Assembly (NCBI GenBank): GCA_945876285.1
Contig: CAMCNO010000007.1
Coordinates: 1-64,000, forward strand
DNA from: an uncultured Clostridia bacterium
GTDB lineage: Bacteria; Bacillota; Clostridia; Oscillospirales; Oscillospiraceae
Direction: 5' to 3'
Length of the DNA: 64,000 nt
Made by a program: the position numbers and the translations under genes. The notes under the pieces are model-generated. The model was not told where the DNA came from. It did not search any database and saw only the letters and a program-made list of their open reading frames with translations. Position 1 is the first letter of the stretch, and each line of letters starts with the position of its first letter. Below, piece after piece: positions 23,994 through 64,000 of this stretch.

Positions 23994-24022
23994 GAAATTT
24001 GAAAAAACGCCCCTGTTATCAT
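23994..24022 (+). promoter_or_regulatory. Shared promoter element GAAATTTGAAA-N12-TATCAT
   Basis: GAAATTTGAAAaaacgcccctgtTATCAT, 33 nt before the clpP-like ATG. Confidence 0.75.
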
Positions 24023-24055
24023 GGGGTCAGAACAAACGAATCGGAGGTAACAACC

Positions 24056-24649: not shown

Positions 24650-24668
24650 GAGAGAAAGGAGCGTACAT

Positions 24669-26148: not shown

Positions 26149-26178
26149 CGTAAATGAAGTTCAGGAGGTAAGAACGAT

Positions 26179-27411
26179 ATGAAATCTCAGGTAACTGTGA
26201 CTGTGAATATTCAGCAGGCCAAGGAAGCCCTGGCCCAGACGGCGGAGCTGTACTTCGCCAAGGACGCAGTGGGCAACTGGCGTCTGGACCGCAGGCGCGC
26301 CCGCCCGGTGTGCCTCATGGGCCCCGCGGGCATCGGCAAGACGGAGATCGTCCGCCAGGTGGCGGAGGAGCAGGGACTGGCCTTCCTGTCCTATTCCGTC
26401 ACCCACCACACCCGCCAGAGCGCCATCGGCCTGCCCCGTCTGACGGAGCGGCAGGTGGACGGCAAGACCGTCTGCGTGACGGAGTACACCCTCAGCGAGA
26501 TCGTGGCGGAGGTCTGGCGGGTCATGGAGGAGAGCGGAAAGGAGAAGGGCATCCTGTTCCTGGACGAGTTCAACTGCGCCAGCGAGACCCTGCGCCCCGC
26601 CATGCTGCAGCTGCTGCAGAGCAAGTCCTTCGGCCCCCACGCCCTGCCTGACGGCTGGATGCTGGTGCTGGCGGGCAACCCCGGCGAGTACAACGCCTCC
26701 GCCACCGCCCTGGACCCTGTCATGGCAGACCGTATGCGCCTGCTGTGGCTGGCGCCTGACTACGCCGCCTGGCGGGCCTACATGGTGGAGCGGGGCGTGC
26801 ATCCCATGGTGCTGTCCTATCTGGATGACCACCGCAGCCACTTCTACGTCTTTGAGAAGGACGGCGACGGCACGGGTCTGGTCACCGCCCGCGGTTGGGA
26901 GGACCTGTCCATCCTGCTGCGCATGATGGAGGAGAAGAACTTCCCCGTGGACCTGACCTTCGTGTCCCAGTTCCTCCAGTCCTCCAAGGTGGCCCGGGGC
27001 TTCTACACCTACTACGAGCAGTACAGCGAGCTGCTGCACTCCGGCATCATTGACCGTATCCTGCAGGGCGAGCGTCTGAAGGAGGCGGAGCAGGAGGTGA
27101 CGGAGATGGGATTCCCCCGGCGCTGGGCACTGACCTGCGTGCTGCTGCTGCGGCTGGAGAACCTGTGCGCGGACAAGAAGCCCGAGGCCGGCACGGCCAT
27201 GGAGACGGTGCTGCGGTTCTATCAGCACTGCGAGGCATGCCGTCCCAACCTGGAATTCCTGCTGAACGGCCTGACCAACAGCGATCCCTGCGCTCTGTAT
27301 ATCGCCGCCAACGGCTGCGAGACCTACCGGGCGCTGGTGGAGGAGCTGTTCTTCCGCAGCGACACCCCCTCCACGCGGAAGCTGAAGAGCCTTCTGGCAA
27401 AGGTCAGCTGA
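26179..27411 (+). CDS. MoxR-type AAA+ ATPase (copy 2)
   Basis: 410 aa; CLMGPAGIGKTEIVRQVAEEQGLAFLSYSVTHHTRQSAIGLPRL, GILFLDEFNCASETLRPAMLQLLQ. Confidence 0.9.
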   Translation: MKSQVTVTVNIQQAKEALAQTAELYFAKDAVGNWRLDRRRARPVCLMGPAGIGKTEIVRQVAEEQGLAFLSYSVTHHTRQSAIGLPRLTERQVDGKTVCVTEYTLSEIVAEVWRVMEESGKEKGILFLDEFNCASETLRPAMLQLLQSKSFGPHALPDGWMLVLAGNPGEYNASATALDPVMADRMRLLWLAPDYAAWRAYMVERGVHPMVLSYLDDHRSHFYVFEKDGDGTGLVTARGWEDLSILLRMMEEKNFPVDLTFVSQFLQSSKVARGFYTYYEQYSELLHSGIIDRILQGERLKEAEQEVTEMGFPRRWALTCVLLLRLENLCADKKPEAGTAMETVLRFYQHCEACRPNLEFLLNGLTNSDPCALYIAANGCETYRALVEELFFRSDTPSTRKLKSLLAKVS

Positions 27412-27438
27412 GGGCGCACAAGCACAGGGAGGAACGGT

Positions 27439-29475: not shown

Positions 29476-30596
29476 TTCGAGTCCGACTAGTCAGCGAGCC
29501 GGAATACCGGCGGATGCTGAAGGAGGGGACCTGCGCGGTATATGGAGAATGGCAGTTCTGCCGCTTGCTGGACGAAGGGCGAGATTTCTCCGATGAGGCC
29601 AGCCGGGCGCTGCTGCGGGAGCTCCATGGGGATACCATGGCGGACAAGTGCTGCCGGCGGGTGACCCAGGCGGGTAAGCCCTGCCTGCCAGCCCTCTCCT
29701 CGGAGGCGAAATACGGCCTGACCGCGCTGGTAAACTCGGCAGACGGGGTCTACACCATCATGGAAGCACGATTCTTTCCCTACGAGACAGGCGCCCGCCT
29801 GGACCACGTGGGCAAATTCCGAAACTACGGCTATCCCATGCTCTGGGATGTGTTTTCCGCTCTGGAACAGGATGTGCTGTTTGCGCTGCGGGCGAAGGAT
29901 ATTCCCTTCATGGGCACTGTTCATCTGGGCACTGACTTTCTGCTGGAGAACTATCCGTGGCACGGCGTGCCCACCATGGCGTGGGTGGAGGAGAGACGCC
30001 TGGGAGCAACGGAGCAGGACGGCATGCTGCGGGTGAGCAACAGCTTTCACCGCCTGCGCTTCGACTGGACACAGGACACGGAGGAGGTGTTGGACACGCT
30101 GCGCCGTCTGACCCATCCGCCCATGCCGCTGGCCTGCGGCGAGATGTCTCTGGACGGGTTTCGACGCATGTGCAGGGCGTGTCTGGGCGAGCCGGACGAT
30201 CCGAAAACAGATGGGGAGCCCGCAAGGCCGGACATGCGGGTGTTCAACCACATGGCCTATCTGCCGGACGCCCACCGCCCGGAGCTGATGGTCGTTGAGG
30301 CCCATGACGACGGGCGCTGCCGCCTGGACCGCTGTTTTTCGGAGAACCATCCGTCCTACCTGGACCTGCTGGCGCAGGTCATGGACCTCGCCATTCCCGA
30401 CGGTGAGGTGGTCGTGCTGGCGGTGGACACGGACGAGCCGATGCACTCTGCCAGAGACATCGAAAGAGCGATGTGCGCGTTTCGGCTTGTGGGCCGGACC
30501 GTGGAGACCTACGGGCGGCAGGAGGGCCTGCAGGTATTTGAGGAGACCCTTCGCCGGGCCTGCGGTCGAGCTGCAAAGGAAGCAGAGCCGGAATAA
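29472..30596 (+). CDS. Unknown protein, paralogous to 36688-37827
   Basis: 374 aa; ATGA overlap with the ankyrin gene; shared MxRxRLxSEPE, GKPCLxAxSxEAKYGLT, FLLENYP. Confidence 0.75.
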   Translation: MIRVRLVSEPEYRRMLKEGTCAVYGEWQFCRLLDEGRDFSDEASRALLRELHGDTMADKCCRRVTQAGKPCLPALSSEAKYGLTALVNSADGVYTIMEARFFPYETGARLDHVGKFRNYGYPMLWDVFSALEQDVLFALRAKDIPFMGTVHLGTDFLLENYPWHGVPTMAWVEERRLGATEQDGMLRVSNSFHRLRFDWTQDTEEVLDTLRRLTHPPMPLACGEMSLDGFRRMCRACLGEPDDPKTDGEPARPDMRVFNHMAYLPDAHRPELMVVEAHDDGRCRLDRCFSENHPSYLDLLAQVMDLAIPDGEVVVLAVDTDEPMHSARDIERAMCAFRLVGRTVETYGRQEGLQVFEETLRRACGRAAKEAEPE

Positions 30597-30651: not shown

Positions 30652-32115
30652 TCAATCTTCGCCGTATTGCTTTGCGGCGGCCTTCAGGGTCTTCTTGATT
30701 TCATCCCGGAGGGACTGGGGCTCCAGGACCTCCACCCGGTCCATATACTGGAGGGCAAAGAGCCGGGTGCCGGACTCCGAGGCCCGTACAAAGACCTCGG
30801 TGTACCCGTCCTTGGGCGTGGAATAGCTGGTGATGGTGGTGCCGAAGAAGTCCATCAGGGTGCTCAGAAGGGACGTCTCACAGCGCAGGCGGGTCAGCAC
30901 CGGCGTGCCGGGGTACATGACGGGGGAGCGGTCCCGGTATTCGTAGGCATCGAAGTTTTTATCCGGCTCAAAGGCTTCCGTGGTGGGGAAGACCTCCATG
31001 ATGCGGTCCAGTCTCAGGTTCCGCATGCCGCCGTCCTTCACCCGCTTGCAGACCAGGTAATAGTAGCCGTTGGACCACATCATGGCGTAAGGCTCTACCA
31101 CCATGGGACGGTCGCCCAGCGCCGTCAGCTCCGGCTGCCATTTGCCGCTCTTCATGGACAACTGGTACTGGCCGTACCGGATGCCCACCTTATGCTTGTC
31201 CCGGATGGCCTGGTCCAGCTGTTCAATATGCTCGAACTGCACGGCGGAGGGCGTTTTTTTCGCATAGCGGTTGCCGCTCCAGTTCCGTACGCCGGGGGCC
31301 ATCCGCTGCATGGCAGACAGGAACTTCTGGGTCTGGGCCTCGCTGATGTAGGGGTAGACCAGGATCAGATCGGAGAGCATCCGCCACTCCGCGGGAGACA
31401 GGACGCTGGACAGGTAGTATCTGCGGGGCGGACTGATGGGCTCGTTTTTCTTCCTGGAAGCGGCGTTCCGGTTTCCGGCTGTTTTGGGAGGGTCCGGCGC
31501 TTTGGCCTTCAGCTCCCATTGGGAGGCGGGGATGTACTGATAGCCGGTGCTGCCGCGGCGCACCGCCACCACGCCGGCCAGAGAGATGGGCGGGGCTTCC
31601 GGGAAGACCGAGTCATCCGTCTCCTCCTCGCCGTCCTGCACCCCGTTCGCCTCGCGGTACTGCTTCATCAGCTGGGGGAGCTTGTTGTTCAGCGTGTTCT
31701 GGGAAACAGGGTTGGCGGAGCTTTCCAGAAAGACGGCGTTCATTTCGTACTCGTCGGGGGACAGGGGCTTCCCGGTGGGGCCTTCCATCACCACATGGAG
31801 CTTGCCCTGGTGGGTATAGGCTTGGACGATGGTATCCTTGCCCGCCTCGCACAGCACAGTATTGGGGAACAGAGTGTTAAAGACATCCGCGTCGATGGGG
31901 AAGTGCTTGGCAAGGGTGTTTCGCCGGGTCCCCTCCGCGCCTTTGTCCAGATATTCCAGAATTTGTCCCGAGGTCAGGGGATGCTCCGCGGAGGCGTGGG
32001 CGGCCAGGACGTTCCAGATGTCCGTCAGGGTCTTGATGGTATTGCTGTAGGAACCGCGGCTGTTGTCCTGCTTTTCCGCTGGGGCTTCCTTCTTTTTAGG
32101 GGCCTTGTTATTCAT
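30652..32115 (-). CDS. WYL-domain transcriptional regulator
   Basis: Start MNNKAPKKKEA at 32115; helical N-terminus (LTDIWNVLAAHASAEHPLTSGQILEYL); WYL-like VGIRYGQYQLSMKSGKWQPELTALGDRPMVVEPYAMMWSNGYYYLVCKRVKDGGMRNLRLDRIMEV. Confidence 0.82.
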   Translation of the reverse strand: MNNKAPKKKEAPAEKQDNSRGSYSNTIKTLTDIWNVLAAHASAEHPLTSGQILEYLDKGAEGTRRNTLAKHFPIDADVFNTLFPNTVLCEAGKDTIVQAYTHQGKLHVVMEGPTGKPLSPDEYEMNAVFLESSANPVSQNTLNNKLPQLMKQYREANGVQDGEEETDDSVFPEAPPISLAGVVAVRRGSTGYQYIPASQWELKAKAPDPPKTAGNRNAASRKKNEPISPPRRYYLSSVLSPAEWRMLSDLILVYPYISEAQTQKFLSAMQRMAPGVRNWSGNRYAKKTPSAVQFEHIEQLDQAIRDKHKVGIRYGQYQLSMKSGKWQPELTALGDRPMVVEPYAMMWSNGYYYLVCKRVKDGGMRNLRLDRIMEVFPTTEAFEPDKNFDAYEYRDRSPVMYPGTPVLTRLRCETSLLSTLMDFFGTTITSYSTPKDGYTEVFVRASESGTRLFALQYMDRVEVLEPQSLRDEIKKTLKAAAKQYGED

Positions 32116-32232: not shown

Positions 32233-34521
32233 ATGGATTTTCTCGATAGGCTGTTCAGCATGCCTGGAAACAGGTTTTGTTTCCATCCGCTGTACCACGT
32301 TCTGGAGGAAGGGGATGAGGCACAGGCGGAGGAGCTTCTGCGGGACCTGAAGGACCCTTTGCAGGAAGATGACGCCGCCTGCTGTCTGCGTCAGGCGCTG
32401 GAGTGCTCTCCGGGGCTGTTCCGGCGGATTCTGGAGCACTGCCTGCCGGGGGAGTACACGGAGGAGTATTCCTTTTCGCTGGAAACGGATGACTTTGGCA
32501 GCACGGCCTTTATCGTTGGCCACGGCTCGCTGCTGATGCTGGCGGCCATGGCGGACCGGCCCGAGCATGTCCGCATTCTGCTGGAGCAGGGCTATGACTG
32601 CAACGGAGCCGGGCTGGAGATGGCCTGCGGCCTGCTGCGGGACTGTAATGTTTCGTATCAAGTGCCCCTCCACGGAGAACTGATTGGCGCTTACGGCAAT
32701 CGGCTGGAGGTTTTCGAGCCGGGGCTGTGCGAAAACATCTCCGGCGCCACGCCCCTGTCCGCGGCACTGTTTTGCGGCAGTCTGCGGGCGGCGGAAGTGC
32801 TGCTGCACTGGCCGGGCGTCTGGAAAGGGGAGAGCAGCGCCGTCTGCCGTGCGGCCGGTATGGTGCTGGAGGGCTTCGGAGAGACCGTGCTGCTCAGGGA
32901 ACGGCGGGACGCGCGGATGGCGCTCCTGTGGCAGATCTTCTGCCCGGAGCTGCCGGACCGGGAGCCCCTGCTGCGGAGCTGCCGCCTGCAGAGCGTATCC
33001 TTCTTTGACCTGTGCAGCGTCAAAACCCTGCGCTGCCAGCTGGAAAGCGGCTTTTGCACAGAGGCAGAGGGGCGGGAGATGCTGCGGTTTGCGGGAGAGA
33101 TCGTCGGCTGGGACAATGAGGATGCCGGGCGGACGCTTGCCGGAAAGCTGCTGCTCCTGAAGCAGGCCTTTCCCTCCCTCTGCCGGGAGCCGTGGGCCAC
33201 AGGGGTGTTCCTGCAGGAGGTCCTGCGCCGCTATGTCAACGATAAGCCGTATAAGACACTGTTAAAAGCATGGAAACAGTTATCTGGCAAGGAGAGAGAC
33301 TTGACATGGGTGAATCCGGTTTTTTGGAGGATGAAATGCCGCGCCCTGGGGCGCTTTCTGGACGAGGCAGGTGAGGGCGGCACGCTGGTGATGGACGTGC
33401 CCGCGGTGAGCCTGGGAAATGTGAATATCTACGGCGGGGTGATGGGCATTAACGGCGCGGCCGGCAGCGGCTGGGCGAGAGCGTTTCTCAAGCGGGTGCG
33501 CCTGCGCCGCCGGGAGGGCGAAGGCTTCGGTCAGGCCGTGCGGCAGCTTTTGCACATCGGCGACGCCCGGACGATGCGCCTTGCCGCGCGGCAGGGCCTG
33601 CTGGACGGAGAGGACCCCCGGGAGCTAGTGCGCTATCTGGTGGACCATCCGGACATCAGCCAGAATGGACGCATGCTGGTGCTGACGCTCCCGGAAAGGC
33701 AGCTGGCTGAGGAAACTGACTACGCTGACTGGCAGGACATGCGGCGCTGGCCGTATTGGAGCGTCCCATACGCGGGAGAGGCCATCCGGGAGGATGTGAA
33801 GCAGTTGATGAACGACCAGCTCCCCCGGGAGGTATGCCTGCGGAAAATGTTTGCCTTGTTCAAGTATATGGACGGCTTTTGCGGCTGGGACTGCTTCTGG
33901 AGCCAGGCCGTACCGGCGTATGACGACCGGTATCCGCTGCTGCAGGTTCCGGCACTGGGGGAACTTGCCTGCTGCGCAAAGCATGGGCAGGTCATGGCGC
34001 TTCTGCTGGAGCAGATGCCCCATCTGCTTCGCAAGCGCATGGACATCTCCTGGGGCGAACATTTTGATTTTCGGGGGACGGCCCTGTGCCTGTCCGCGGC
34101 CCTTGGCCGGACGGAGCAGGTCCGTATGCTCCTGGATGATGGCGCACACCCGGACGACGCGGGAAGGGGAGATTTCTCCCAATTCATCGTGGGGGATTTG
34201 ACCCGGCAGGACCGCTTCCTCCCGGTGACGCCTGTGCTGGCGGCGATCCTGTTTGCCCAGGAGGAGACTGCCCGGCTGCTGCTGGAGCGGGGGGCGGTAT
34301 GCGACTTTACCCGGCCTGCCCACCGAAGAGTTCTGCTGTGGGGCAGCGCGGATACCCTGGCGCTGGCGGAGCGGCTGCCCGGCGTGGGTTTTGCGCAGAT
34401 CCCGGAGGGAGAGCTGGAGGCGCTGCGGGTCCATGTGGCGGAGGGCGGCGTGCAGGACCGCTTCTGGAAGCGCCTGCAGACGGGAGAATCGCCGGATACT
34501 TGGTGGAAGCCATTCGAATAA
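32233..34521 (+). CDS. Ankyrin-repeat protein (WPGVW subfamily)
   Basis: 762 aa; SLLMLAAMADRPEHVRILLEQGYDCNGAG, TPLSAALFCGSLRAAEVLLHWPGVWKGESSAVCRAA, TPVLAAILFAQEETARLLLERGAVCDF. Confidence 0.87.
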   Translation: MDFLDRLFSMPGNRFCFHPLYHVLEEGDEAQAEELLRDLKDPLQEDDAACCLRQALECSPGLFRRILEHCLPGEYTEEYSFSLETDDFGSTAFIVGHGSLLMLAAMADRPEHVRILLEQGYDCNGAGLEMACGLLRDCNVSYQVPLHGELIGAYGNRLEVFEPGLCENISGATPLSAALFCGSLRAAEVLLHWPGVWKGESSAVCRAAGMVLEGFGETVLLRERRDARMALLWQIFCPELPDREPLLRSCRLQSVSFFDLCSVKTLRCQLESGFCTEAEGREMLRFAGEIVGWDNEDAGRTLAGKLLLLKQAFPSLCREPWATGVFLQEVLRRYVNDKPYKTLLKAWKQLSGKERDLTWVNPVFWRMKCRALGRFLDEAGEGGTLVMDVPAVSLGNVNIYGGVMGINGAAGSGWARAFLKRVRLRRREGEGFGQAVRQLLHIGDARTMRLAARQGLLDGEDPRELVRYLVDHPDISQNGRMLVLTLPERQLAEETDYADWQDMRRWPYWSVPYAGEAIREDVKQLMNDQLPREVCLRKMFALFKYMDGFCGWDCFWSQAVPAYDDRYPLLQVPALGELACCAKHGQVMALLLEQMPHLLRKRMDISWGEHFDFRGTALCLSAALGRTEQVRMLLDDGAHPDDAGRGDFSQFIVGDLTRQDRFLPVTPVLAAILFAQEETARLLLERGAVCDFTRPAHRRVLLWGSADTLALAERLPGVGFAQIPEGELEALRVHVAEGGVQDRFWKRLQTGESPDTWWKPFE

Positions 34522-34543
34522 CGGAACTACGGAGGAGGTACAG

Positions 34544-36691
34544 ATGGAACAGGGAACAACACCCAACGAGGCCATGGCGGCGCTGCTGGAGCGATATCAG
34601 GAAATGGTGGAGAACCCCGACCAGGAAGACCTAGAGCGAGAGATCTATGTGGAGGCCTGGCAGGGTAACTGGCAGGAAGCCCTGCGGCTTCTGCGCCTGC
34701 TGCCCGGCCCCGTCACCCGGGAAACGGCGGGGGTGTATCTGTTCCAGGCCCTTTGCTCCGCACCGCCCCAGACGTTCGCAGAGCTGCTGGACCGGCTGCC
34801 CCACAGGGAGTATACGGGTCAGGACACCGTCCCTGCCCCGTGGATGCCCGGCAACGGAAGACGCCGCCATCACCGCTGGGAGGTCCGCATACAGGGCACG
34901 CTGACCCTGCTGGCAGTGGCGAAGAACCGCCCCGCCCATCTGGCCATTCTGCTGGAGCGGGGATACGACGTGAACTGCGCCTCTCTGGCGGCTGCGGCGG
35001 CGCTGGAGGACGCCTTCGGCTACGAAACGGACCATTATGGGTCGGATTTTGCGCCCTACCATCCCTTCACCGCCCGGGTGGAGAGCCGCCTGTTTGTGAT
35101 GCGGCACGACGGAGACCCTCAGGACATTCCACCTCTGGAGCTGGAGGGGGCCACGCCGCTGGCGGCGGCCATCCTCTTTGGGCACGGGGAATGTGCCCGA
35201 GTGCTGATGGAGCACGGCGCATGGTGCATGGAGTCCCCGGGTGTCAGCCGGGCCATGTGGCTGGCGTGGCGGGAGAAGGACGAGACGTACCGCGCTGTCC
35301 GGGACAAGGTGCTGGCCCGGAGCGGAGGACGGCCCGTCCTGTGGGCGCTGTGCCCCACCTGCTCACCCAGTCAGCTGGACAGCGTGCTGCGCACCTGGGC
35401 TTTTCCCCGGGAGGAGATGGCCGCCGCTGCCCGGAAGATGATGGTGGAGTTCCAGTTTCAGGACGGCCTGTGGCAGCAGCCGGAGCAGGGCTGGAAGGAC
35501 CTGTGCTGCCGCCTGCGGCTGGTGGGCCGGACCTGCCCGGAGGCGCTGTGCGCCCCGGAGGCGGCGGGAGAGCTGCTGGACCGGTGCGCGGATGCGGAGG
35601 AATGGGAGCTGTCACCCTTCCTGCCCATTCTGGAGGGGAGGACGGTGGACCTGTCTCAGCTTCCCGGCCATCTTCTGCTGGGCCGAAGAGAGGAGTACCC
35701 CATGCTGGAGACGCTGGCCGCCCACTGCAGCCTTGTGATGGACCGGGAAGGCGTGTCGATGGTTACGCCGCCTCAGGCGCTCCGTCTGCTGGTGAAGCAT
35801 GTGACCTTCCTGCCGCCAACCATGGAACAGGGCGTCAGCAATCTGACCATTGCCCTGCTGCGGAGAGGGTCTCCCAAGCTGATCGCCCAGGCTCTGCGGC
35901 AGGGCGCCATCCCGCCGGAGGAGACCACGGAGGAGCTGCTGCACTGCCAGATGGCGCTGAAGCTGCCGCCGGTCTGCCGTGCCCTGCTGCTGACCGTACC
36001 CCGGCCCGCGGCTTCCCGCCCGCCGGAGCCCCGGAGGCTCATCCGCAAGGGGATGCCCCGGTGGTTCCGGGAGGAGGTTTCAGGCAATGCGGCGCCGATC
36101 CTGGAGGAGAGAGACTGGGCTAGGTGGTTTTACCCGCTGCTGTGCTGCGAGACGGCGGACTGTCGGGCGGAGGCTGTGGGTGAGCGCTGGCAGACGGGCA
36201 ATATCCTGTACGCCCTGTGTATGCGGGGAGAGACAGAGGTGGTGGCCCGCTGGCTGCGCTATTCCTGGGAGGAACTGTGGAATACGGATATCTTCTATTG
36301 CCGGAACCGGAAGTGGAGTGTGACGGCAACGCCCCTGTGTGCCGCGGCTTTGGCGGGGCAGACAGACACAGTCCGCCTGCTGCTGGACCACGGCGCCCCG
36401 GCAGCGGAGGAGCAGTGCGGCTGGCCCAGCGTCTGGAGCGTCTGGGGAGAGGAGACAAGGGACTGCACATTCCCCATCACGCCGCTGCTGGCGGCGCTGC
36501 TGGGAGGGCACTGGGAGACAGCCCGCCTGCTGCTGGACCACGGCGCCGGCTGTGATCTCCGGGAGGAGAGGACCCGGGAACTGTGTACACGGATTCATAA
36601 AGAGGATTTGGAGAGCGCGGCTGCGTCCCATCTGGAGGCGTATCTCTCCAGGGACGGTGTGCTGCGCGGAAAGGGAGGAGACAGCGTATGA
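34544..36691 (+). CDS. Ankyrin-repeat protein (second subfamily)
   Basis: Start MEQGTTPNEAMAAL at 34544 after ggaggag; TPLAAAILFGHGECARVLMEHGAWCMES, TPLCAAALAGQTDTVRLLLDHGAP, TPLLAALLGGHWETARLLLDHGAGCDL. Confidence 0.87.
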   Translation: MEQGTTPNEAMAALLERYQEMVENPDQEDLEREIYVEAWQGNWQEALRLLRLLPGPVTRETAGVYLFQALCSAPPQTFAELLDRLPHREYTGQDTVPAPWMPGNGRRRHHRWEVRIQGTLTLLAVAKNRPAHLAILLERGYDVNCASLAAAAALEDAFGYETDHYGSDFAPYHPFTARVESRLFVMRHDGDPQDIPPLELEGATPLAAAILFGHGECARVLMEHGAWCMESPGVSRAMWLAWREKDETYRAVRDKVLARSGGRPVLWALCPTCSPSQLDSVLRTWAFPREEMAAAARKMMVEFQFQDGLWQQPEQGWKDLCCRLRLVGRTCPEALCAPEAAGELLDRCADAEEWELSPFLPILEGRTVDLSQLPGHLLLGRREEYPMLETLAAHCSLVMDREGVSMVTPPQALRLLVKHVTFLPPTMEQGVSNLTIALLRRGSPKLIAQALRQGAIPPEETTEELLHCQMALKLPPVCRALLLTVPRPAASRPPEPRRLIRKGMPRWFREEVSGNAAPILEERDWARWFYPLLCCETADCRAEAVGERWQTGNILYALCMRGETEVVARWLRYSWEELWNTDIFYCRNRKWSVTATPLCAAALAGQTDTVRLLLDHGAPAAEEQCGWPSVWSVWGEETRDCTFPITPLLAALLGGHWETARLLLDHGAGCDLREERTRELCTRIHKEDLESAAASHLEAYLSRDGVLRGKGGDSV

Positions 36692-37827
36692 TGCGCATCA
36701 GACTGATTTCGGAACCGGAGTGGGGGAGCAGGAGGCAGGAAAACCGCCTCACCAGCTACGATGAGAGCTGTTTTTTCGATCTGCTGCGGGAGAAGGGGAC
36801 GTTCGACGACGAGGCCAGCATCCAGCTTCTGACGTATCTCCACGGTGAGGAGGCTGTGACGGAGCGGTGGTACAGCCGCGTCACGCCGGATGGAAAGCCC
36901 TGCCTGTCCGCCATCTCCCAGGAGGCCAAGTACGGCCTGACGGTCATTGCAAACTCCCGGAAGGGCATCTACACCGAGATTGAGGAGGAATTCACGGAGT
37001 TTGAGGTGGAGTCCCGAATGGAGAACTGCGTCAGCGCGGATTCCGGCCTCCCGCTGGTCTGGAACGCCTTTGCCGCTTTGGACATGGACATCCTGCTGGT
37101 GTTCCGAAAGAAGAATTTTTCCTTTGGTTGGGATATCCCCGTGGATAACGACTTTCTGCTGGAGAACTATCCCGGCGAGAACGGCCCCATGGAGGTCTGG
37201 GTGAAAGAGGCGCTTGTAGAAAAGGGAGAGACCCACAACGGACTGCCCTGCGTTCACAATTACTTCTATGCCCAGCGGTATGATTGGCGGAAGGAGACCG
37301 ACGACCTGCTGGAGGTGCTGGACGAGCTGAACTGCGGCAGACGGCCGCTGGCCAAGGGCATGTTTTCTCTGCAGGAGTTTTACACCATGATTGGCGAAGA
37401 CTGGACCTGCTCGGACCCCGACGATGACTGGGAGGAAACAGCGCGGACGTCCATGAAGATCGTCAACCACATGAGCTGCATGCCCGATGAGACGGAAGCC
37501 AGGCGGGTGCGGTATCTGCTGATCGAAAAGCGGATGAACGGCACCTACTGCCTGCGGAGCCAAAACTCGGTGAAGTATCCGGAGTACTGGGAGATGCTGG
37601 ATGAGGCAGAAACCTTTGCAGTTCCCGGCGGCGAGGTCTTGGTCCTGCCGGTGGATGTGAATGAGGTCGTGAGCTGCGCCAGAGACCTGGAGAAGGCCGT
37701 GTGCGCCTTCCGGGTTTCGGACGGCGTGGTGGAGCTGTTTGACAAGGCGGAGGGCCTGCGGGAATTTACGGCACTGCTGCAGGAGGCGCTGAACTCCGGC
37801 AAGTGCACCGTCCCGGAAGATGACTGA
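36688..37827 (+). CDS. Unknown protein, paralogous to 29472-30596
   Basis: 379 aa; MMRIRLISEPE, GKPCLSAISQEAKYGLT, NDFLLENYPGENGP; ATGA overlap with the ankyrin gene. Confidence 0.75.
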   Translation: MMRIRLISEPEWGSRRQENRLTSYDESCFFDLLREKGTFDDEASIQLLTYLHGEEAVTERWYSRVTPDGKPCLSAISQEAKYGLTVIANSRKGIYTEIEEEFTEFEVESRMENCVSADSGLPLVWNAFAALDMDILLVFRKKNFSFGWDIPVDNDFLLENYPGENGPMEVWVKEALVEKGETHNGLPCVHNYFYAQRYDWRKETDDLLEVLDELNCGRRPLAKGMFSLQEFYTMIGEDWTCSDPDDDWEETARTSMKIVNHMSCMPDETEARRVRYLLIEKRMNGTYCLRSQNSVKYPEYWEMLDEAETFAVPGGEVLVLPVDVNEVVSCARDLEKAVCAFRVSDGVVELFDKAEGLREFTALLQEALNSGKCTVPEDD

Positions 37828-37836
37828 GGTGGTTTC

Positions 37837-40059
37837 ATGGATCTTTGGGACTACAGAGAATTTCGCGAACCGGAACGGTTCTCGGAGGAAGAGGAGACGC
37901 TGCTGTCTGCCCTGGAGCGGGAGGATGAGGCAGAGGCCGGGAGACTGCTGGACGCGCTTGCCCAACCGATCTCAGACCCCTGCGCCCACATCGCCCTGCG
38001 GATGGCGCTGGACTGCCCTGCAGAACTGTTTCGCCGGGTGCTGGACCAGTGCTCTCCGGGCGAATACTCTGAGCTGTATGCCTGGAGGGGGGAGGGGCAC
38101 GAGACCACCATCCGGGCGCGGGGCTCCTTTTTGCTGCTGGCAGCGGCAAAGAACAGGCCCCAGCATGTCCGGGTGCTGCTGGAGCGCGGGTATGACTGCA
38201 ACGGCGCGGGGATCGGACTGGATTGGCGGCTGCAGGCCGCGCGGACGATCAACGGAGATGCCGTGCCGCCCTATGCCCGGTACTGCGCCGCCTGCGGCAA
38301 CCGGCTGGATGTGGACCGCGGCAAAGACACCTGGTCGGTTCCCTGTGCCACGCCCCTGACGGCTGCCCTGCTCTGCGGGAGCCTGGACGCGGCCCAGGTT
38401 TTACTGGACTGGCCCGGCGTCTGGAGGGCGGAGGGCAGCGTTGTCTGCCGTGCCGCTGTGCTGGTGTTGGAAAAAGCGGATATGTGGCTGTTTTCCCCGG
38501 AACAGCAGGCGGCGCAGCGGGAGATTCTGCGGCTCATCTTCTGCCCGGACCGGGCGGGACTGCCGGAGCGTGAGGCGTTTTTCCGGACGTACTGTTTGCA
38601 GCCCGCTTCCTTCGTGGATATCTGCACCGCCCCCACGCTGCGCTGCCAGTTGGAGGGCGGACTGTGTACGGAGGAGGACGCCCGGCAGATGCTGGAGATC
38701 CTCAGCAAAGAGGAGAAAGCGCAGTCCTTTGACCCGGCCAGGGCCGAAAAACTGTTGCTGCTCAAGCAATTTTTCCCCAAGGTGTGCCGCCAGCCCTGGG
38801 CCGCAGAGGCGTTCCTGCGGGAGGCGCTGCGGCACACCGTGGAAGGCCGGCCCTACCAGAAGATGCTGAAGGCCTGGATGGAGCTGTGCGGAGGGGAGCG
38901 GGACCTGACCTGGGCCGGGGAACGACTTTGGGAGATGGACCGGAAGACCCTGCGGCAGTTTCTGGAGGAGGCGGGCCATGGCGGAGAGCTGGTGATGGAC
39001 GCCGACGCAGTGCGGCCCGGAGCGGCCGGGGATCATCCGGACTGCTTGGCAGAGCTTTTATCCAGAGTGCGCTTTCGCCCCCGGGCCGGGGAGGGCGTCA
39101 GCGGCTTGATGCAGGAGCTGCTGGGGACCTCCAACCTGCGGCTGCTGCGTCTGGCGGCAAAGCGGGACGTGTTTTCCGGGGAGGACCCTACGGCCTTGCT
39201 GGAGCATCTGAAGCAGCAGCCTGAGACGGCGCCCGACGGGCGTGCGGTGATTTTGGCATATGCGGGAAAGTCCGAAGCGGTGCAGGCACCCTGGCAGGAG
39301 ATACACCGGTGGGCCGGGTGGAATGCCCGGTTCGGGGTGTCGGAGGAAGCTTGCCGGAGGACACTGGATACCCTGCTGCACGGAGAACTTGCGGAGGAGG
39401 AATATTTTCCGCATCTGTTTCGAGTCTGCTGCTATCAGAAGCAGCAGGCGGCTATGCCGCTTCCCGTAGGCAGTGCCCGATATCCAACGCTGGAGACGTT
39501 CTCACCGTGGGGCGTCGCCTGCTGCGCGGAAAGCGACGGGTTCATGCGGTTCCTGCTGCAGCACATGCCGGACGGCATTCAGGAGGAGGTGCGTATCTGC
39601 TGGAGAGCGGGGAACACCTGGAATGACCTGCTGTGCTTCCGGGGAACGCCCCTGGCGCTGTCCGCAGCACTGGGCCGAACAAAACAGGCGCGGCTGCTGC
39701 TGGACAGAGGCCTGGACCCTGACGAGACGGGGCAGGGTAATCTTGCCCGCTTTTTTGTGAGGCGGGGCTTTGTGGAGGACGGCTTCCTGGTGACGCCCGT
39801 GCTGGCGGCGATCCTGCTGGGGCAGGAGGAGACGGCCCGCCTGCTGCTGGACGCGGGGGCGGTCTGCGACTTTTCCCGCCCGTCCCATCTGCGGGTGCTG
39901 CGGCAGGGCAGCGAGGAAACCTTGCGCCTTGCCGAAAGTCTGCCTGGCGTGGGCTTTGAGGAGCTTCCGGAAGCGGAACGGGAAGTCTTGCGGCTGGCCG
40001 TGACGCAGGACAGACGGAGGCGGGAGTTCTGGGCGGAGCTGGAAATGGAAGCGCCGTGA
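37837..40059 (+). CDS. Ankyrin-repeat protein (WPGVW subfamily)
   Basis: 740 aa; SFLLLAAAKNRPQHVRVLLERGYDCNGAG, TPLTAALLCGSLDAAQVLLDWPGVWRAEGSVVCRAA, TPVLAAILLGQEETARLLLDAGAVCDF. Confidence 0.87.
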   Translation: MDLWDYREFREPERFSEEEETLLSALEREDEAEAGRLLDALAQPISDPCAHIALRMALDCPAELFRRVLDQCSPGEYSELYAWRGEGHETTIRARGSFLLLAAAKNRPQHVRVLLERGYDCNGAGIGLDWRLQAARTINGDAVPPYARYCAACGNRLDVDRGKDTWSVPCATPLTAALLCGSLDAAQVLLDWPGVWRAEGSVVCRAAVLVLEKADMWLFSPEQQAAQREILRLIFCPDRAGLPEREAFFRTYCLQPASFVDICTAPTLRCQLEGGLCTEEDARQMLEILSKEEKAQSFDPARAEKLLLLKQFFPKVCRQPWAAEAFLREALRHTVEGRPYQKMLKAWMELCGGERDLTWAGERLWEMDRKTLRQFLEEAGHGGELVMDADAVRPGAAGDHPDCLAELLSRVRFRPRAGEGVSGLMQELLGTSNLRLLRLAAKRDVFSGEDPTALLEHLKQQPETAPDGRAVILAYAGKSEAVQAPWQEIHRWAGWNARFGVSEEACRRTLDTLLHGELAEEEYFPHLFRVCCYQKQQAAMPLPVGSARYPTLETFSPWGVACCAESDGFMRFLLQHMPDGIQEEVRICWRAGNTWNDLLCFRGTPLALSAALGRTKQARLLLDRGLDPDETGQGNLARFFVRRGFVEDGFLVTPVLAAILLGQEETARLLLDAGAVCDFSRPSHLRVLRQGSEETLRLAESLPGVGFEELPEAEREVLRLAVTQDRRRREFWAELEMEAP

Positions 40060-49274: not shown

Positions 49275-50132
49275 TCACGTGAGGCAGCGGTAGGACGCAA
49301 TGGTGACTCCGTTCTTGCCGAGATATCGTTTGATCTCATACAGATAGGGGAAGGCCTCCAGCAGCTGGAGCAGCTTGGCATAGCCGTGAGCGCGGCAGTC
49401 GAAGAGAGGCAGCTGCTTATGGAGGTGGTTGCCTGCCGCGGCAAGATTCACAAAACCGTCGGAGTCCTGCCAGGTAACCGAGGCTTCCCGCAGGAGGTCG
49501 TGGACCTTCTCCGGTACATCATCCTCCTCGGTCAGATCGTCTGTCTGCGGGGTGGGAGAATCCATTTGAAGGTCGATTTCCAAATCGGAAAAGGGATCCT
49601 CCATCTCGAAGGGACTGAACAAGTCCTCCACCGGCGGGTCGGAAAGAGCACCCGAAGGCTTCTGAGGCAGGTCGTCGAGAAACAGGAACTCATCGCAGGC
49701 ATTCCGGAAGGACTCCGTCGCCTGCCGGGAGCCTACGCCGATGACCTTGACGCCGGCTTCCCGGAGCCGAATGGCCAGCGGCGTATAGTCGCTGTCGCTG
49801 GCGACGATGGCGAAGGCGTGGTATTCATGGCTGTGGAGCAGGTCCATGGCGTCGATGGTCAGAGCCATGTCCGTGGCGTTTTTGCCGACGGCGCAGTCGA
49901 ATTGCTGTGCGGCCTTGATGGCGAAGCGCTTGATCTCGGGTTCCCATCCCTTCAGATACTCCTTGCGCCAGTTGCCGTAGGCGCGCTTGACCGCGATGCG
50001 GCCACGGGTGGAGATCTCCTGCAGAGCGTCTCCGATTTTAGAGCTTTGCGTGTTGTCTGCGTCAATGAGGACAGCGACTTTCTTCCAGTCTTCCATGGAA
50101 ACTCCCTTCTTTTGTTTGGCATGTTGCGCCAT
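49275..50132 (-). CDS. NYN-domain ribonuclease-like protein with C-terminal LOTUS/OST-HTH-like domain
   Basis: AVLIDADNTQSSKIGDALQEISTRG, IAVKRAYGNW, KNATDMALTIDAMDLLHSHEYHAFAIVASDSDYTPLAIRLREAGVKVIGVG; C-term GFVNLAAAGNHLHKQLPLFDCRAHGYAKLLQLLEAFPYLYEI. Start may be 50096 (MEDWKK). Confidence 0.85.
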   Translation of the reverse strand: MAQHAKQKKGVSMEDWKKVAVLIDADNTQSSKIGDALQEISTRGRIAVKRAYGNWRKEYLKGWEPEIKRFAIKAAQQFDCAVGKNATDMALTIDAMDLLHSHEYHAFAIVASDSDYTPLAIRLREAGVKVIGVGSRQATESFRNACDEFLFLDDLPQKPSGALSDPPVEDLFSPFEMEDPFSDLEIDLQMDSPTPQTDDLTEEDDVPEKVHDLLREASVTWQDSDGFVNLAAAGNHLHKQLPLFDCRAHGYAKLLQLLEAFPYLYEIKRYLGKNGVTIASYRCLT

Positions 50133-56091: not shown

Positions 56092-56751
56092 TTAGAAATC
56101 AGGCTCTTCATCCCCGAAGAGCTCGTGGAAAAAGCTGTCGAAGTTCACAGGGGAAGGGGAGGCCATATCCGCCTCCATCTCCAGTTTGGAAGCGAATTCC
56201 CGCTCTTTGAACAGCAGGCGGGAGGCCATCACCTTGTTTTCCGGTACAAACATGCTTGTGGGAGGCAGGAAGATCTCATCCAGCGGAGCTGCGGATTCCT
56301 CCAATTCCTCCGAACGGGAGTACCCGTCCTCTACTTCCATCCAGGCATAGCGGCGATACTTGCCGGCGCAGCGGCCGTAGGCCAGCCGGTAGCGCATGCG
56401 TACGCCAGTGAGAAGGATGCGTTCATTCTGCTCGGTTGTGAAGCTGGCGGCGTAGGGAGAAATCTCAACCGGCTCCGTCAGGTGGGATACCTGAATTGGT
56501 TGGATAAAGGGCTGTTTCCAGAATTTCACCTTCTGATCTCCAACCTGGTATTGCCGGTACAGCGACAGGATTTCGTGCTCGTAGCTATGGGGGTCCGGCT
56601 CATTGTCAGGTGCGCTGGGAGTTTGCTGCTCCAGGGAGGCAAAGAAATCGTCCAGCATGGCGGAAGTGCCTGCATAGGGGAAGAAGTAGCCGCCCGAAGC
56701 CAACAGCGTGATTTGGTAAAGCGGGGTATCGGTGGAGAGAGCAATCTTCAT
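56092..56751 (-). CDS. Hypothetical protein
   Basis: 219-aa ORF between convergent and divergent ankyrin genes. Confidence 0.6.
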   Translation of the reverse strand: MKIALSTDTPLYQITLLASGGYFFPYAGTSAMLDDFFASLEQQTPSAPDNEPDPHSYEHEILSLYRQYQVGDQKVKFWKQPFIQPIQVSHLTEPVEISPYAASFTTEQNERILLTGVRMRYRLAYGRCAGKYRRYAWMEVEDGYSRSEELEESAAPLDEIFLPPTSMFVPENKVMASRLLFKEREFASKLEMEADMASPSPVNFDSFFHELFGDEEPDF

Positions 56752-59120: not shown

Positions 59121-59196
59121 TGAAAAGGACCGTTGTGAAGGAGTATTGAAATTATCCGTTCAAAGTATTAGCAACTGGCCTTCTGGACAGAATCCT

Positions 59197-59249
59197 CGAT
59201 TTTAGCCGATTCTTGCAAAAACATAGAATCAAGGATATAATCCCAGCAG
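59197..59249 (+). promoter_or_regulatory. Promoter/operator copy A, upstream of the STAND-like gene
   Basis: TTGCAA (59213-59218)-N17-TATAAT (59236-59241); dyad GATTCT-N11-AGAATC (59208-59230). Confidence 0.75.
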
Positions 59250-59340
59250 GAGTCTGCCGGTTCGGAGCGTGTAGTTTAGTTGGGTGAAACACCCAATCCG
59301 GTAAAGCTAGACAGGCAGAAATGTCAAATGATAGGCAAGG

Positions 59341-62061
59341 ATGCGCAGGCGTGGTCAGGGAGCCGCTGACACGGCCGTGCATATCTCTGAGATGACCAAC
59401 GAGGAGATGACACGTATGATGATTCGAAGAGAGGAAATGGAGCCGTTCCGTAAACTGATGGATTCAGACGAAGTTTCTGTGGTGAATCTTTACGGAGAAG
59501 CCGGGATCGGCAAGTCGTCTTTTGTGAAGCATCTGATCAAAAGCGATGATGTGAAAAACCGGATGGTAGGCGGCTATCTTGACTTTGGGCATATAAAGAC
59601 GCCGGTGGAAGATGAGATGATCGACAGCCTGTATGATTTGTGCGATCAGCTGAAGATTATCAGCAATTTTAAGCCGGATGATTTTAATGTTGCGGATTAT
59701 GTGGACAGCAGACGCAGCAAGCGCATCCCCTACGCAGAGAGAAGTGAATCAGGCACAGGAATCGATCTGATCGACACTGCGCTGGACATTTCGGAAATTG
59801 CATCGCAGTTTATTGACCTGACTTATCTGGGTACCGGCCTGAAAGCATGGAAAATGCTGACAAATATCTATCAGAAATACAAAGCGGTCTCTGAGGAGGA
59901 AAAAGCCCGCTATCAGAAATATGAATCCATGGATGACCGTACGCTGCGGAACAGTCTTCCTGGAGCGCTGGCCACTGACCTTAACTCGCTTAAGGGCAAG
60001 GGACGCCGTAAGATCGTGATGGTTCTGGATCATGTGGACAGTCATGAGGGAGAACTGGGGAAAAGTGACCATTCGTGGCTGCACAAGCTGCTGGAGAGGA
60101 AGGACTCCGGAATAAAGTGGGTTGTGGTCACCAGAAAACCCCTGACTGATCCAATCGCTGGTATGGAAAAGCTGGAAATCAAGGCGATTCCTGACACCGA
60201 CATGCGGGACTATCTGGAGAAGCAGTCGATCCGCCCCGCTGATATTGACCAGATCATAACGTTAAGCGGCGGATCACCCTTCTATTTACAGCGCGTTCTG
60301 GCGCTCATCCAAGAAAAGAAATCTTTTACGGAGGATGACTGGATTCGCCTGCAGTCCAGAGATCGGTTGTACATTGCCCGTGAATATGTAGACAATCTGC
60401 CTGCTGAACTGTCGGATATCCTGTTCGTGCTGGCTTGTGCCGAAGAATTTGACCGGAGCCTGTTCCATATCCTGTTTCCCGAAAAATTGTTTGAACGACT
60501 GCTTCAGTGGTTTCTTGGTTCAACATTTGAGCACACAGGCGGGAGATACCGCGTACAAAGCAGCATGAAGGATATCATCCTGGATTACCTGGCCGAGTTG
60601 AATCCCAACATCGAGCAGGAATGCTATGACAAGCTCTTTGCTGCGGAGTGTCAGTGGGTTCGACAGTATTCGTCTGAGGCCGGAGCAGATCTTGATCATC
60701 ATCTGCGCAATCTGTGCCTTTACGCAAAGAAACGGGGAGATATCAGAACCAGCTTTGCCGCATTGAGCGAGCTGAAGGGAATCATGCTCTCCACCGGAAA
60801 TGCCACATTATACAGCAAAGAAGTGGAGGAACTTCTGACGGCATGTGAACAGCAGGATGGGGTGCAGTTGAGCATTCTTCTGGAGGCGGCGCTGCTTGCC
60901 TACTACTGGGCGGACTACCAACAAGCAGCACAGCGCTGTGTGCAGGGGCGTGACCTTGCCCGCCGGAATAAAAGTGCCGCCATGGAGCTCCAGTTTTTGG
61001 CGATTCAGATGGATGTTGCCCATATTGCGCCATCCGATGAGAAGGATGCCAGCCAGCAGGTGATCGATCTGGCCACTGCATTTCTCACGCTGCTGGAACA
61101 GCAAAGAGCCGCCATTCCGTACAGAATGTATCTTACCAACAAGATGAATGTGTACCTTCGGTTGGCCAGAGCATACACCACAAAGAGCAACTTCCCCAGA
61201 GCGCTTGCTTATCTGCAGGACTTCTTTAAAACCCTCACCGCCGACAAGGTCAGTGCGTTGGGCCTTCATGACCTGTATGCCCGCGCCCATGAAATGATGG
61301 GAAATCTGTATGGACAGATGGGGAAGCATGAGGATGAACTGGATATGGAGTATCGGGCCGTTGACGCCTATAACATTGCTGAGGTGATGCAGCGGATCTG
61401 GGATCCGGAATTCGAACTGAATTTCGGACTGGCCTGTAAGAGACTGGGGGAAAGCTGTCTCCGCGAGGGGAAGCTGGAAGAAGGGCTGGCGCTGATAGAC
61501 GATGCTCTGGCCAAATATCAGCTGGTAAAACAGAACGCTCCGGAGATCATAGATACCTATTGTAAGATAGGATTTGCCTGTAATGATGCGGCTCAGTATT
61601 TGCTGAAGTATGAGAGCTACAGAAAGAAGGCGGAGGAGTATCTTGCCTGTGCGGAGAATACCGCCAATGAAGCCATAAACTTCATGGAGAAGCTGAAGGG
61701 TACGGAGACCGTTGGAAACCGACAGATCTGCAGTATTCGCTGTACCGCAGCACGCCTTTCCGGTGTCCTGCTGTTTACCCAGAACCGGCATCAGGAAGCG
61801 GAAGGGGCATTCCAAAAAGCGTTGGAGTATGGACGCCAGTTTGTCCTTGCGGTACCGACGCATCCCTATTCCTATTTAGGGAATGCCAGAACTTATGTAA
61901 ACTATGCGGAATTTTTGTCGGAGACGGGTCGCCGCCAGGAAGCAGGAAAGGCTGCAGAATACGGCATGGAGGCATTGAGAATGGCTCGGAGTTATTCTGA
62001 TGACGCAAATGCATTCCAAAAGGAATTCGACAGACTGAAACAGCTGAGCTCACTTGCGTAA
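59341..62061 (+). CDS. STAND/NB-ARC-like P-loop ATPase with C-terminal TPR-like helices
   Basis: 906 aa (start uncertain); VVNLYGEAGIGKSSFVKHLI, RKIVMVLDHVDSHEG, ITLSGGSPFYLQRVLAL; TPR-like C-terminal half. Confidence 0.78.
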   Translation: MRRRGQGAADTAVHISEMTNEEMTRMMIRREEMEPFRKLMDSDEVSVVNLYGEAGIGKSSFVKHLIKSDDVKNRMVGGYLDFGHIKTPVEDEMIDSLYDLCDQLKIISNFKPDDFNVADYVDSRRSKRIPYAERSESGTGIDLIDTALDISEIASQFIDLTYLGTGLKAWKMLTNIYQKYKAVSEEEKARYQKYESMDDRTLRNSLPGALATDLNSLKGKGRRKIVMVLDHVDSHEGELGKSDHSWLHKLLERKDSGIKWVVVTRKPLTDPIAGMEKLEIKAIPDTDMRDYLEKQSIRPADIDQIITLSGGSPFYLQRVLALIQEKKSFTEDDWIRLQSRDRLYIAREYVDNLPAELSDILFVLACAEEFDRSLFHILFPEKLFERLLQWFLGSTFEHTGGRYRVQSSMKDIILDYLAELNPNIEQECYDKLFAAECQWVRQYSSEAGADLDHHLRNLCLYAKKRGDIRTSFAALSELKGIMLSTGNATLYSKEVEELLTACEQQDGVQLSILLEAALLAYYWADYQQAAQRCVQGRDLARRNKSAAMELQFLAIQMDVAHIAPSDEKDASQQVIDLATAFLTLLEQQRAAIPYRMYLTNKMNVYLRLARAYTTKSNFPRALAYLQDFFKTLTADKVSALGLHDLYARAHEMMGNLYGQMGKHEDELDMEYRAVDAYNIAEVMQRIWDPEFELNFGLACKRLGESCLREGKLEEGLALIDDALAKYQLVKQNAPEIIDTYCKIGFACNDAAQYLLKYESYRKKAEEYLACAENTANEAINFMEKLKGTETVGNRQICSIRCTAARLSGVLLFTQNRHQEAEGAFQKALEYGRQFVLAVPTHPYSYLGNARTYVNYAEFLSETGRRQEAGKAAEYGMEALRMARSYSDDANAFQKEFDRLKQLSSLA

Positions 62062-62196
62062 ATCGGTTCTGGCAACAGAAAAGTCAGTGCGGCATGGGCA
62101 GCGGTGCTGGCACAGACCTGGCAGGCGCCATTTGGTTTCGTATGAGTAAGGGGCGGTCTGCACAACCGAAATAACGGATTTGGATTGAACAGGGAG

Positions 62197-62248
62197 CCTC
62201 GCAGAAGCGGAACAAGCCGTTCCGCTTCTGCGAGGTCTTTGATTTTTT
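62197..62248 (+). terminator. Strong Rho-independent terminator
   Basis: Perfect 17-bp stem CCTCGCAGAAGCGGAAC-aagcc-GTTCCGCTTCTGCGAGG then tctttgaTTTTTT. Confidence 0.85.
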
Positions 62249-62313
62249 ATAAAGTGTCGGAGTGCTGTTTGCTCTCTATAAAAAACTCCAACGGATCACT
62301 GGGCGGAATGATT

Positions 62314-62366
62314 CGATTTTGGTCGATTCTTGCAAAAAAACAGAATCAGGGATATAATCCAAACAG
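62314..62366 (+). promoter_or_regulatory. Promoter/operator copy B, upstream of the dGTPase-like gene
   Basis: TTGCAA (62330-62335)-N17-TATAAT (62353-62358); dyad GATTCT-N11-AGAATC (62325-62347); near-duplicate of copy A. Confidence 0.75.
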
Positions 62367-62432
62367 AAATATACCGGAGCAGAGCATCCGGAAAGAAAAT
62401 GCCAAATCTGTGCAAACAGGAGAGAGAACACA

Positions 62433-64000
62433 ATGGAATGGAAAACATTATTGTCTACCCAGAGACAGGGAGAAAAGAAAGAGAAAGCGAAGCAGTTTAC
62501 CCGCTTTGACATCAATGACTTTGATGATGATTTTCTTGCAATCGTTTCCAGCCAGGCCTTCCGCAGACTGCAGGATAAGACGCAGGTGTTCCCGCTGGAC
62601 AAGAGCGATTTTGTCCGCACGCGGTTGACGCATTCCATGGAGGTGTCCACCATCGCGCGGCAGATTGGCGTAATGATTGCACAGGATCATTCCCAGTATC
62701 TAAAGGAGGATTTCAAAAACGATCCGGTGCTGGCGGCCAAGCTGCCCACAGTGGTATCCTGCGCCGGCCTGCTCCACGATATCGGCAATCCGCCCTTCGG
62801 TCATTACGGCGAGTCTGTACTGGGCAACTGGTTCCGTAAGAAATTCCAGGATGACAGCTTTACCTTCCGCGGCGTGAAGGTGGCGGATCTGCTGAACGAG
62901 CAGATGAAGGCGGATCTGGAGCATTTCGAGGGCAATGCCCAGGGCCTCCGCATTCTGGCCAAGAGCCGCAACAAGGAGAACGGATGCGATGTCAATCTGA
63001 CCTATGCGGTGATGAATACCCTGATCAAGTATCCTACCAGCTCTACAAACTTTGATAAAAAGCATCCGGATGTGAAATACCACAAGCTGGGCTATTATTA
63101 CGCGGAGAAGGAGATCATGGACCAGGTCTGTCAGGCCACCGGTACAAAGACCGAAAATGGCTATGTCCGCCATCCGCTGGTATTCATCATGGAGGCAGCT
63201 GACGACATCGCCTACGCCACGGCGGACCTGGAGGACGCCTTCAAGAAGGAGCAGTTCACGCTGGATCAGTTTATGGCGTACTTTGAGAAGAAGGCCGCGG
63301 CAGTCTTTAGCCGGAAGCTGGAGGAGTTCATTCACTCCTGTGAGGATGCGGAACTGCAGGCGAAGATGCGTCAGTATGTTGCGATCCGCAACCAGATGAA
63401 GACCGTGCTTGCCGAAAACGCCCCCGATGCTCAGGAGAAGGTGCAGGCGCTGGATTCAGAGAGAAGGGCGTTGTTTACCGAGGAGGAGCAGGGCGCACTG
63501 AACGCGCTTTCCCGCACCATCGACAATCTGAAAAAGCCGGAGGCACGTTTTAAGGTGCTGAAAAAGCTGGTGGCAGAGCAGGAGATTCGCTCCACGGAGA
63601 CGGATTTCAATGTGTTCTCCAACTGGCTGGAGGAGACGCGGCTGTGGCTGATGTACAGCGCTTGCTTTGCCTTCTCCATGCACTATCAGGAGATCATGGC
63701 AGGCACCTTTACCAAAGACCTGTTTGAGGGGACTTACAGCGAGGATCTGCTGGAGATCATGAAGAGCGTGATGCGGAAATTTGTGTATGACACCCATGAC
63801 ATGGTGCTGCTGCAGCTTTCTGCCAAGCGCATCGTGGAGACGCTGCTGGATGATTTCATCAGCGCCGCCATGTACTACGATGAGCCGGATGCGGATCAGT
63901 ACATCACGCTGATCGATGACCGCTTCATCCGTGTGATCCCGGATAATTTCAAAGAGGACTATAAGGCTGCCAAGCGGAATCTGCCGGCAGACATGGAGAA
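62433..64000 (+). CDS. dgt: dGTPase-like HD-domain dNTP triphosphohydrolase (partial, runs off window)
   Basis: Read from ATG 62433, absent from the ORF track because no stop in window: MEWKTLLSTQRQGEK...SSQAFRRLQDKTQVFPLDKSDFVRTRLTHSMEVSTIARQIG...VSCAGLLHDIGNPPFGHYGE...FIMEAADDIAYATADLEDA. Confidence 0.88.
   Translation, partial: MEWKTLLSTQRQGEKKEKAKQFTRFDINDFDDDFLAIVSSQAFRRLQDKTQVFPLDKSDFVRTRLTHSMEVSTIARQIGVMIAQDHSQYLKEDFKNDPVLAAKLPTVVSCAGLLHDIGNPPFGHYGESVLGNWFRKKFQDDSFTFRGVKVADLLNEQMKADLEHFEGNAQGLRILAKSRNKENGCDVNLTYAVMNTLIKYPTSSTNFDKKHPDVKYHKLGYYYAEKEIMDQVCQATGTKTENGYVRHPLVFIMEAADDIAYATADLEDAFKKEQFTLDQFMAYFEKKAAAVFSRKLEEFIHSCEDAELQAKMRQYVAIRNQMKTVLAENAPDAQEKVQALDSERRALFTEEEQGALNALSRTIDNLKKPEARFKVLKKLVAEQEIRSTETDFNVFSNWLEETRLWLMYSACFAFSMHYQEIMAGTFTKDLFEGTYSEDLLEIMKSVMRKFVYDTHDMVLLQLSAKRIVETLLDDFISAAMYYDEPDADQYITLIDDRFIRVIPDNFKEDYKAAKRNLPADME

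What the first reader, a model, noticed from the sequence alone, without database searches (positions are those of the whole stretch)
59197..62366. Near-duplicate promoter/operator controls a STAND-like ATPase and a dGTPase
About 53 nt upstream of each gene are nearly identical: cgatttt(a/g)g(c/t)cgattcttgcaaaaa...agaatca(a/g)ggatataatcc. Both contain TTGCAA-N17-TATAAT and the dyad GATTCT-N11-AGAATC overlapping the -35 and spacer, a typical repressor position. STAND ATPases and dGTPases are both known antiphage families, so shared control suggests a two-part defence unit.
Basis: partly seen in the sequence, partly recalled or inferred. Interest (0 to 1): 0.72.

Follow-up and report, generated by a model that had tools for sequence, protein, structure and literature searches.

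The report
Twin-promoter STAND and dGTPase-McrBC cassette
Two nearly identical switch-like promoters drive a STAND-type sensor gene on one side and a three-gene operon (a dGTP-destroying enzyme plus the two halves of a McrBC DNA-cutting machine) on the other, in what looks like one imported antiviral cassette; the parts are known, but I found no other example of this combination.

Summary
A 73-nt repeat (59/73 identical; 46/53 in the core) lies at 59196-59268 and 62313-62385. It carries the invariant dyad GATTCT-N11-AGAATC and TTGCAA-N17-TATAAT. It occurs exactly twice in the draft host genome and in none of 198 relatives. Chance is excluded (expected about 1e-10).

The second promoter does not serve a lone dGTPase. 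Past the window edge the dGTPase is followed by an McrB GTPase (C7:64148-66106) and an McrC nuclease (66103-67890), overlapping by 4 nt and closed by a terminator-like hairpin. The STAND gene has its own strong terminator, so these are two transcription units under one duplicated promoter. All four genes form a low-GC block (50-53% against about 60-65% for most neighbours), suggesting one acquired cassette. Catalytic motifs are intact. The STAND protein has no room for an N-terminal effector domain and no detectable relative.

Most likely it is a four-gene, co-regulated antiphage cassette: STAND/TPR sensor plus dGTP depletion plus McrBC cleavage. Shared sequence is shown. Shared regulation, the repressor, and defence are inferred. 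No dGTPase-McrBC pairing was found elsewhere, in limited searches. Verdict: new variant of a known kind.

The parts
59196..59268 (+). Promoter/operator copy 1 (73-nt repeat; dyad 59208-59230; -35 TTGCAA 59213-59218; -10 TATAAT 59236-59241)
59341..62061 (+). STAND-like P-loop NTPase with TPR solenoid; ORF 906 aa, probable real start ATG 59416 after GAGGAG; Walker A GEAGIGKS, Walker B-like IVMVLD, GSP; no room for an N-terminal effector domain
   Evidence: Pfam AAA_16/NB-ARC below cut-off, TPR above cut-off; motifs; no relatives; low-confidence single-sequence model, C-terminal half all helical
62196..62244 (+). Intrinsic terminator between STAND and promoter 2: perfect 17-bp stem, 5-nt loop, T-rich tail
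62313..62385 (+). Promoter/operator copy 2 (dyad 62325-62347; TTGCAA-N17-TATAAT)
62433..64000 (+). dGTP triphosphohydrolase (HD), 559 aa, continues to 64112 beyond the window; HD/HxxE motifs intact; about 65-residue insertion after residue ~285 relative to relatives. Followed outside the window (G000:C7) by McrB-like GTPase 64148-66106 and McrC 66103-67890 and a terminator-like hairpin

Best explanation
A horizontally acquired, four-gene antiphage cassette of two transcription units that share one duplicated promoter/operator. Unit 1 makes a STAND-like NTPase with a TPR sensor; unit 2 makes dGTPase, McrB and McrC. A transcription factor binding GATTCT-N11-AGAATC, over the -35 and spacer, most likely holds both promoters down together and releases them together. 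McrBC then translocates on and cleaves phage DNA (probably modified or otherwise marked), while the dGTPase starves phage replication of dGTP. The STAND protein acts as sensor or regulator without a built-in effector domain. Shown: the repeat, its uniqueness, gene order, intact motifs, terminators, the low-GC block. Inferred: shared repression, the regulator, phage defence, and any functional contact between STAND and the operon.
For: 73-nt repeat bounded at the promoters, identity falling to 19/60 just upstream. Dyad arms, -35 and -10 are invariant and all 7 core differences fall outside them (P=0.013, post hoc). Only two copies in the genome and none in 198 relatives. McrB Walker A and GTPase motif MNDIDRS, McrC PD...DAK, dGTPase HD/HxxE all intact. 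Operon geometry: 35-nt gap, 4-nt overlap, hairpin after McrC. Separate terminator after STAND. STAND 50.7, dGTPase 53.3, McrB 49.9, McrC 50.6 %GC against 64.1 and 59.9 % for the flanking genes. dGTPase is accessory: 5 of 300 other family genomes. PADLOC dGTPase E=4e-69.
Against: No regulator is identified; no HTH gene lies in the cassette. Only one genome has the arrangement, so the dyad cannot be tested by comparison. The McrB N-terminal domain (about 210 aa) has no Pfam match, so the target is unknown. Two copies of a promoter may be left over from a duplication without a dedicated regulator. Some other genes of the region also have about 52-56% GC (PLD-helicase, AAA ATPase, ORF 56092-56751). 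No defence assay.
Confidence: 0.55

Rival explanations
1. Two unrelated defence systems side by side (orphan STAND; dGTPase-McrBC) that use a copied promoter, with no functional cooperation.
For: Separate transcription units with a strong terminator between them; no recurrence of STAND with the operon elsewhere.
Against: A sequence-matched operator maintained at both promoters and a single low-GC block argue for joint arrival and joint control.
Confidence: 0.25
2. The dyad is not an operator: the repeat is simply a copied strong sigma-A promoter, constitutive, and the inverted hexamers are incidental.
For: No regulator found; only 6-bp arms with an 11-bp spacer; the promoter core alone could explain conservation.
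Against: Arms kept while flanking and spacer bases changed (7 of 7 core changes outside arms and hexamers, P=0.013 post hoc); perfect dyad expected 0.05 times per genome.
Confidence: 0.3
3. The dGTPase is a housekeeping nucleotide-pool enzyme and McrBC an ordinary type IV restriction system; adjacency is accidental.
For: dGTPases in the relatives examined are not next to McrBC and closest plasmid hits include chromosome-like housekeeping contexts.
Against: Tight operon (35-nt gap, one promoter, one terminator-like hairpin), low GC shared with McrBC, and rarity of this dGTPase in the family.
Confidence: 0.12

Closest known systems
Antiphage dGTPase (PADLOC dGTPase PDLC02374; Shewanella Sp-dGTPase, Tal et al. 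2022 as cited in PMC12265719)
   Same: HD-fold dGTP triphosphohydrolase with intact HD and HxxE motifs, accessory distribution
   Different: To my knowledge known defence dGTPases act as single genes; here it heads an operon with McrB and McrC and has an extra insertion
Clover (CloA dGTPase + CloB nucleotidyltransferase; PMC12265719)
   Same: dGTPase encoded first in a defence operon; relatives on Bacillus and Phaeobacter plasmids sit before a small hypothetical gene that could be CloB (not tested)
   Different: No CloB-like gene here; McrB-McrC occupy that place
McrBC type IV restriction (E. coli McrBC; McrB structures 6hz4, 6ut3-6ut8)
   Same: McrB AAA+ GTPase with MNxxDRS motif, McrC with PF10117 and PD-(D/E)xK, overlapping genes
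   Different: McrB N-terminal domain matches no Pfam family; preceded by dGTPase. The McrBC/CoCoNuT census (PMC11090510) does not mention dGTPase in its main text
STAND NTPases (Avs-type defence, NB-ARC/AAA_16)
   Same: P-loop, Walker B-like strand, GSP motif, TPR array behind
   Different: No N-terminal effector domain; Pfam NTPase scores below cut-off; no relatives found
BrxR/WYL-controlled defence islands (PMC9122601)
   Same: One repressor binding inverted repeats at two promoters of a defence island
   Different: BrxR boxes are 11-bp repeats with a 5-bp spacer and brxR is itself repressed; here 6-bp arms with an 11-bp spacer and no regulator gene in the cassette

Membership tests
dGTPase (HD, PADLOC dGTPase) | Family profile match and intact HD / HxxE catalytic motifs | tested here: met
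   PDLC02374 E=4e-69; PF01966; motifs H67, H115-D116, H124xxE127, D258 conserved with relatives
dGTPase (HD, PADLOC dGTPase) | dGTP hydrolysis and depletion upon infection | not testable with these tools
   needs enzyme and phage assays
McrBC type IV restriction | McrB AAA+ with Walker A and GTPase motif MNxxDRS | tested here: met
   GAPGTGKT at 229, DEINR 371, MNDIDRS 458; PDB McrB hits E=3e-30
McrBC type IV restriction | McrC partner with PD-(D/E)xK nuclease adjacent | tested here: met
   PF10117 E=3e-29; PD...DAK starting at 401; 4-nt overlap with mcrB
McrBC type IV restriction | N-terminal modified-base reader | tested here: inconclusive
   residues 1-210 match no Pfam family
STAND NTPase | P-loop NTPase core with hhhhD and GxP-type motifs plus superstructure-forming repeats | tested here: inconclusive
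   AAA_16 E=4e-6 and NB-ARC E=5e-4, both below curated cut-offs; motifs present; TPR above cut-off
Avs-type antiphage STAND | N-terminal effector domain | tested here: not met
   P-loop begins about 27 residues after the probable start
Clover | CloB nucleotidyltransferase next to CloA | tested here: not met
   next genes are McrB and McrC
BrxR/WYL-type island control | 11-bp inverted repeats with 5-bp spacer and local WYL regulator gene carrying the same box | tested here: not met
   arms 6 bp, spacer 11 bp; nearest WYL gene 30652-32115 has no such dyad in its upstream 150 nt

The most novel reading that the evidence does not exclude
A new composite antiphage system in which an effector-less STAND/TPR sensor and a dGTPase-McrBC effector operon form one regulon through a dedicated operator, coupling nucleotide starvation with McrBC DNA cleavage.
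Probability: 0.35. Interest if true: 0.75.

Novelty: new variant of a known kind. Interest (0 to 1): 0.5.

Why it matters
If the four genes act together, it would be a defence unit combining dGTP depletion with McrBC cleavage under one operator, and a STAND-like sensor whose effector may be encoded separately. It gives a directly testable case of how neighbouring defence genes are kept silent and released together, which is little known outside BrxR/CapW-type regulators.

Tried and rejected
Shared element as a common promoter of many genes: rejected, two copies only. Riboswitch or structured leader: no Rfam match, leader fold z=-1.6. The leader after the repeat is not significantly similar between copies (a shared AAATG(T/C)CAAAT is within chance). 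Flanking direct repeats of a mobile element: none over 9 nt. WYL protein 30652-32115 as the repressor: no dyad at its own promoter, so unsupported but not excluded. Clover: no CloB. Synteny with genus relatives by the downstream AAA gene: only paralogues. Homologues of STAND: none in 98 relatives, the GTDB pattern scan, plasmids or phages. McrB pattern scan of GTDB: no relative; 400 family and 398 phylum genomes gave only one weak partial hit each. Repeat DNA against plasmids and phages: none. STAND structure: single-sequence model too poor for a fold search (pLDDT 43).

Full report
Observation. Comparing 58.5-78.4 kb of the host contig with itself, the best direct repeat is a 73-nt ungapped pair, window 59196-59268 and 62313-62385, identical at 59/73 positions and 46/53 in the core; the next-best match to copy 1 in about 78 kb is 27/53. 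A base-composition estimate of the number of such pairs in 64 kb is about 1e-10. Both copies hold GATTCT-N11-AGAATC without mismatch and TTGCAA-N17-TATAAT, the two best sigma-70-like sites in the surrounding 10 kb. Identity falls to 19/60 immediately upstream and is not significant in the leader past the repeat, so the copied piece is a promoter, not a larger segment. All seven core differences fall outside the dyad arms, -35 and -10 (P=0.013, chosen after the fact).

Uniqueness. In the host genome (2.29 Mb draft, 85.5% complete) the long pattern occurs only here, even with three mismatches. The bare dyad at one mismatch adds two sites, near the control level. None of 198 relatives has the element, nor does any plasmid or phage record by blastn.

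What the promoters drive. Copy 1 precedes an ORF of 906 aa (59341-62061; the likely start is ATG 59416 behind GAGGAG, read). It has a P-loop GEAGIGKS, an IVMVLD Walker B-like strand, a GSP motif and TPR repeats. Pfam NTPase models (AAA_16, NB-ARC) score below cut-off, so 'STAND-like' is the right word. There is no room for an N-terminal effector domain. No relative was found in 98 related genomes, the GTDB peptide-pattern scan, plasmids or phages. A perfect 17-bp terminator hairpin follows (62197-62235). Copy 2 then starts a second unit: dGTPase (62433-64112), McrB-like GTPase (contig C7 64148-66106) and McrC (66103-67890), with a 35-nt gap, a 4-nt overlap and a terminator-like hairpin after McrC. 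The catalytic motifs of all three are intact: dGTPase HD and HxxE; McrB GAPGTGKT and MNDIDRS; McrC PD...DAK.

One cassette. The four genes have 50.7, 53.3, 49.9 and 50.6 %GC; the genes immediately on either side have 64.1 and 59.9 %. The drop begins about at the first repeat and ends about at the McrC terminator. This suggests joint acquisition, although some other genes of this accessory region are also of lower GC. The dGTPase is accessory: it occurs in 5 of 300 other genomes of the family and 4 of 398 others of the phylum at the thresholds used. In the relatives and plasmid contexts examined it was never next to McrBC. On Bacillus and Phaeobacter plasmids it sits before a small unknown gene, which recalls Clover's CloB (PMC12265719), but I did not test that identity.

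Mechanism. Most likely a transcription factor binds the dyad over the -35 and spacer and keeps both units low; relief gives a pulse of sensor, dGTPase and McrBC. McrBC would translocate on and cut phage DNA; dGTPase would starve replication. That the STAND protein senses a phage product, and whether it contacts the operon's products, is inference. No regulator is in the cassette. The nearest WYL gene (30652-32115, minus) does not carry the dyad at its own promoter and is neither supported nor excluded. BrxR offers the closest precedent for one repressor at two promoters of a defence island, but its boxes differ in arm length and spacing (PMC9122601).

Limits. The arrangement is known from one draft genome, so nothing here is tested by comparison across loci. 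The viral-contig scans failed for technical reasons and metagenomes could not be scanned, so 'no other dGTPase-McrBC pairing' means none in limited searches. A literature search in the open-access library found no paper linking dGTPase and McrBC as one system.

Noticed in passing
window 15612-29475: Two oppositely oriented copies of a module of VWA (DUF2201) protein, MoxR-type AAA ATPase and large ankyrin-repeat proteins (17439-23746 minus; 24835-29475 plus), around a ClpP-like gene (23999-24649), with more ankyrin-type paralogues at 32233-40059, 47866, 53977 and 56991.
   Followed up: partly
window 7746-12506: 1586-aa helicase with PADLOC ZacC/ZacB-like and DrmD-like matches and 52% GC: another candidate defence gene in the same region.
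   Followed up: partly
window 30652-32115 (-): WYL-domain protein with WCX domain, a candidate regulator inside the accessory region.
   Followed up: partly
window 49275-50132 (-): NYN ribonuclease domain fused to an OST-HTH/LOTUS domain.
   Followed up: no
window 29472-30596 and 36688-37827: Two apparent paralogues of an unknown 374-379 aa protein, each next to an ankyrin gene; the first has no Pfam match.
   Followed up: no
window 62433-64000: The dGTPase has an insertion of about 65 residues after residue ~285 that five relatives lack; rich in charged residues, perhaps a contact surface.
   Followed up: no
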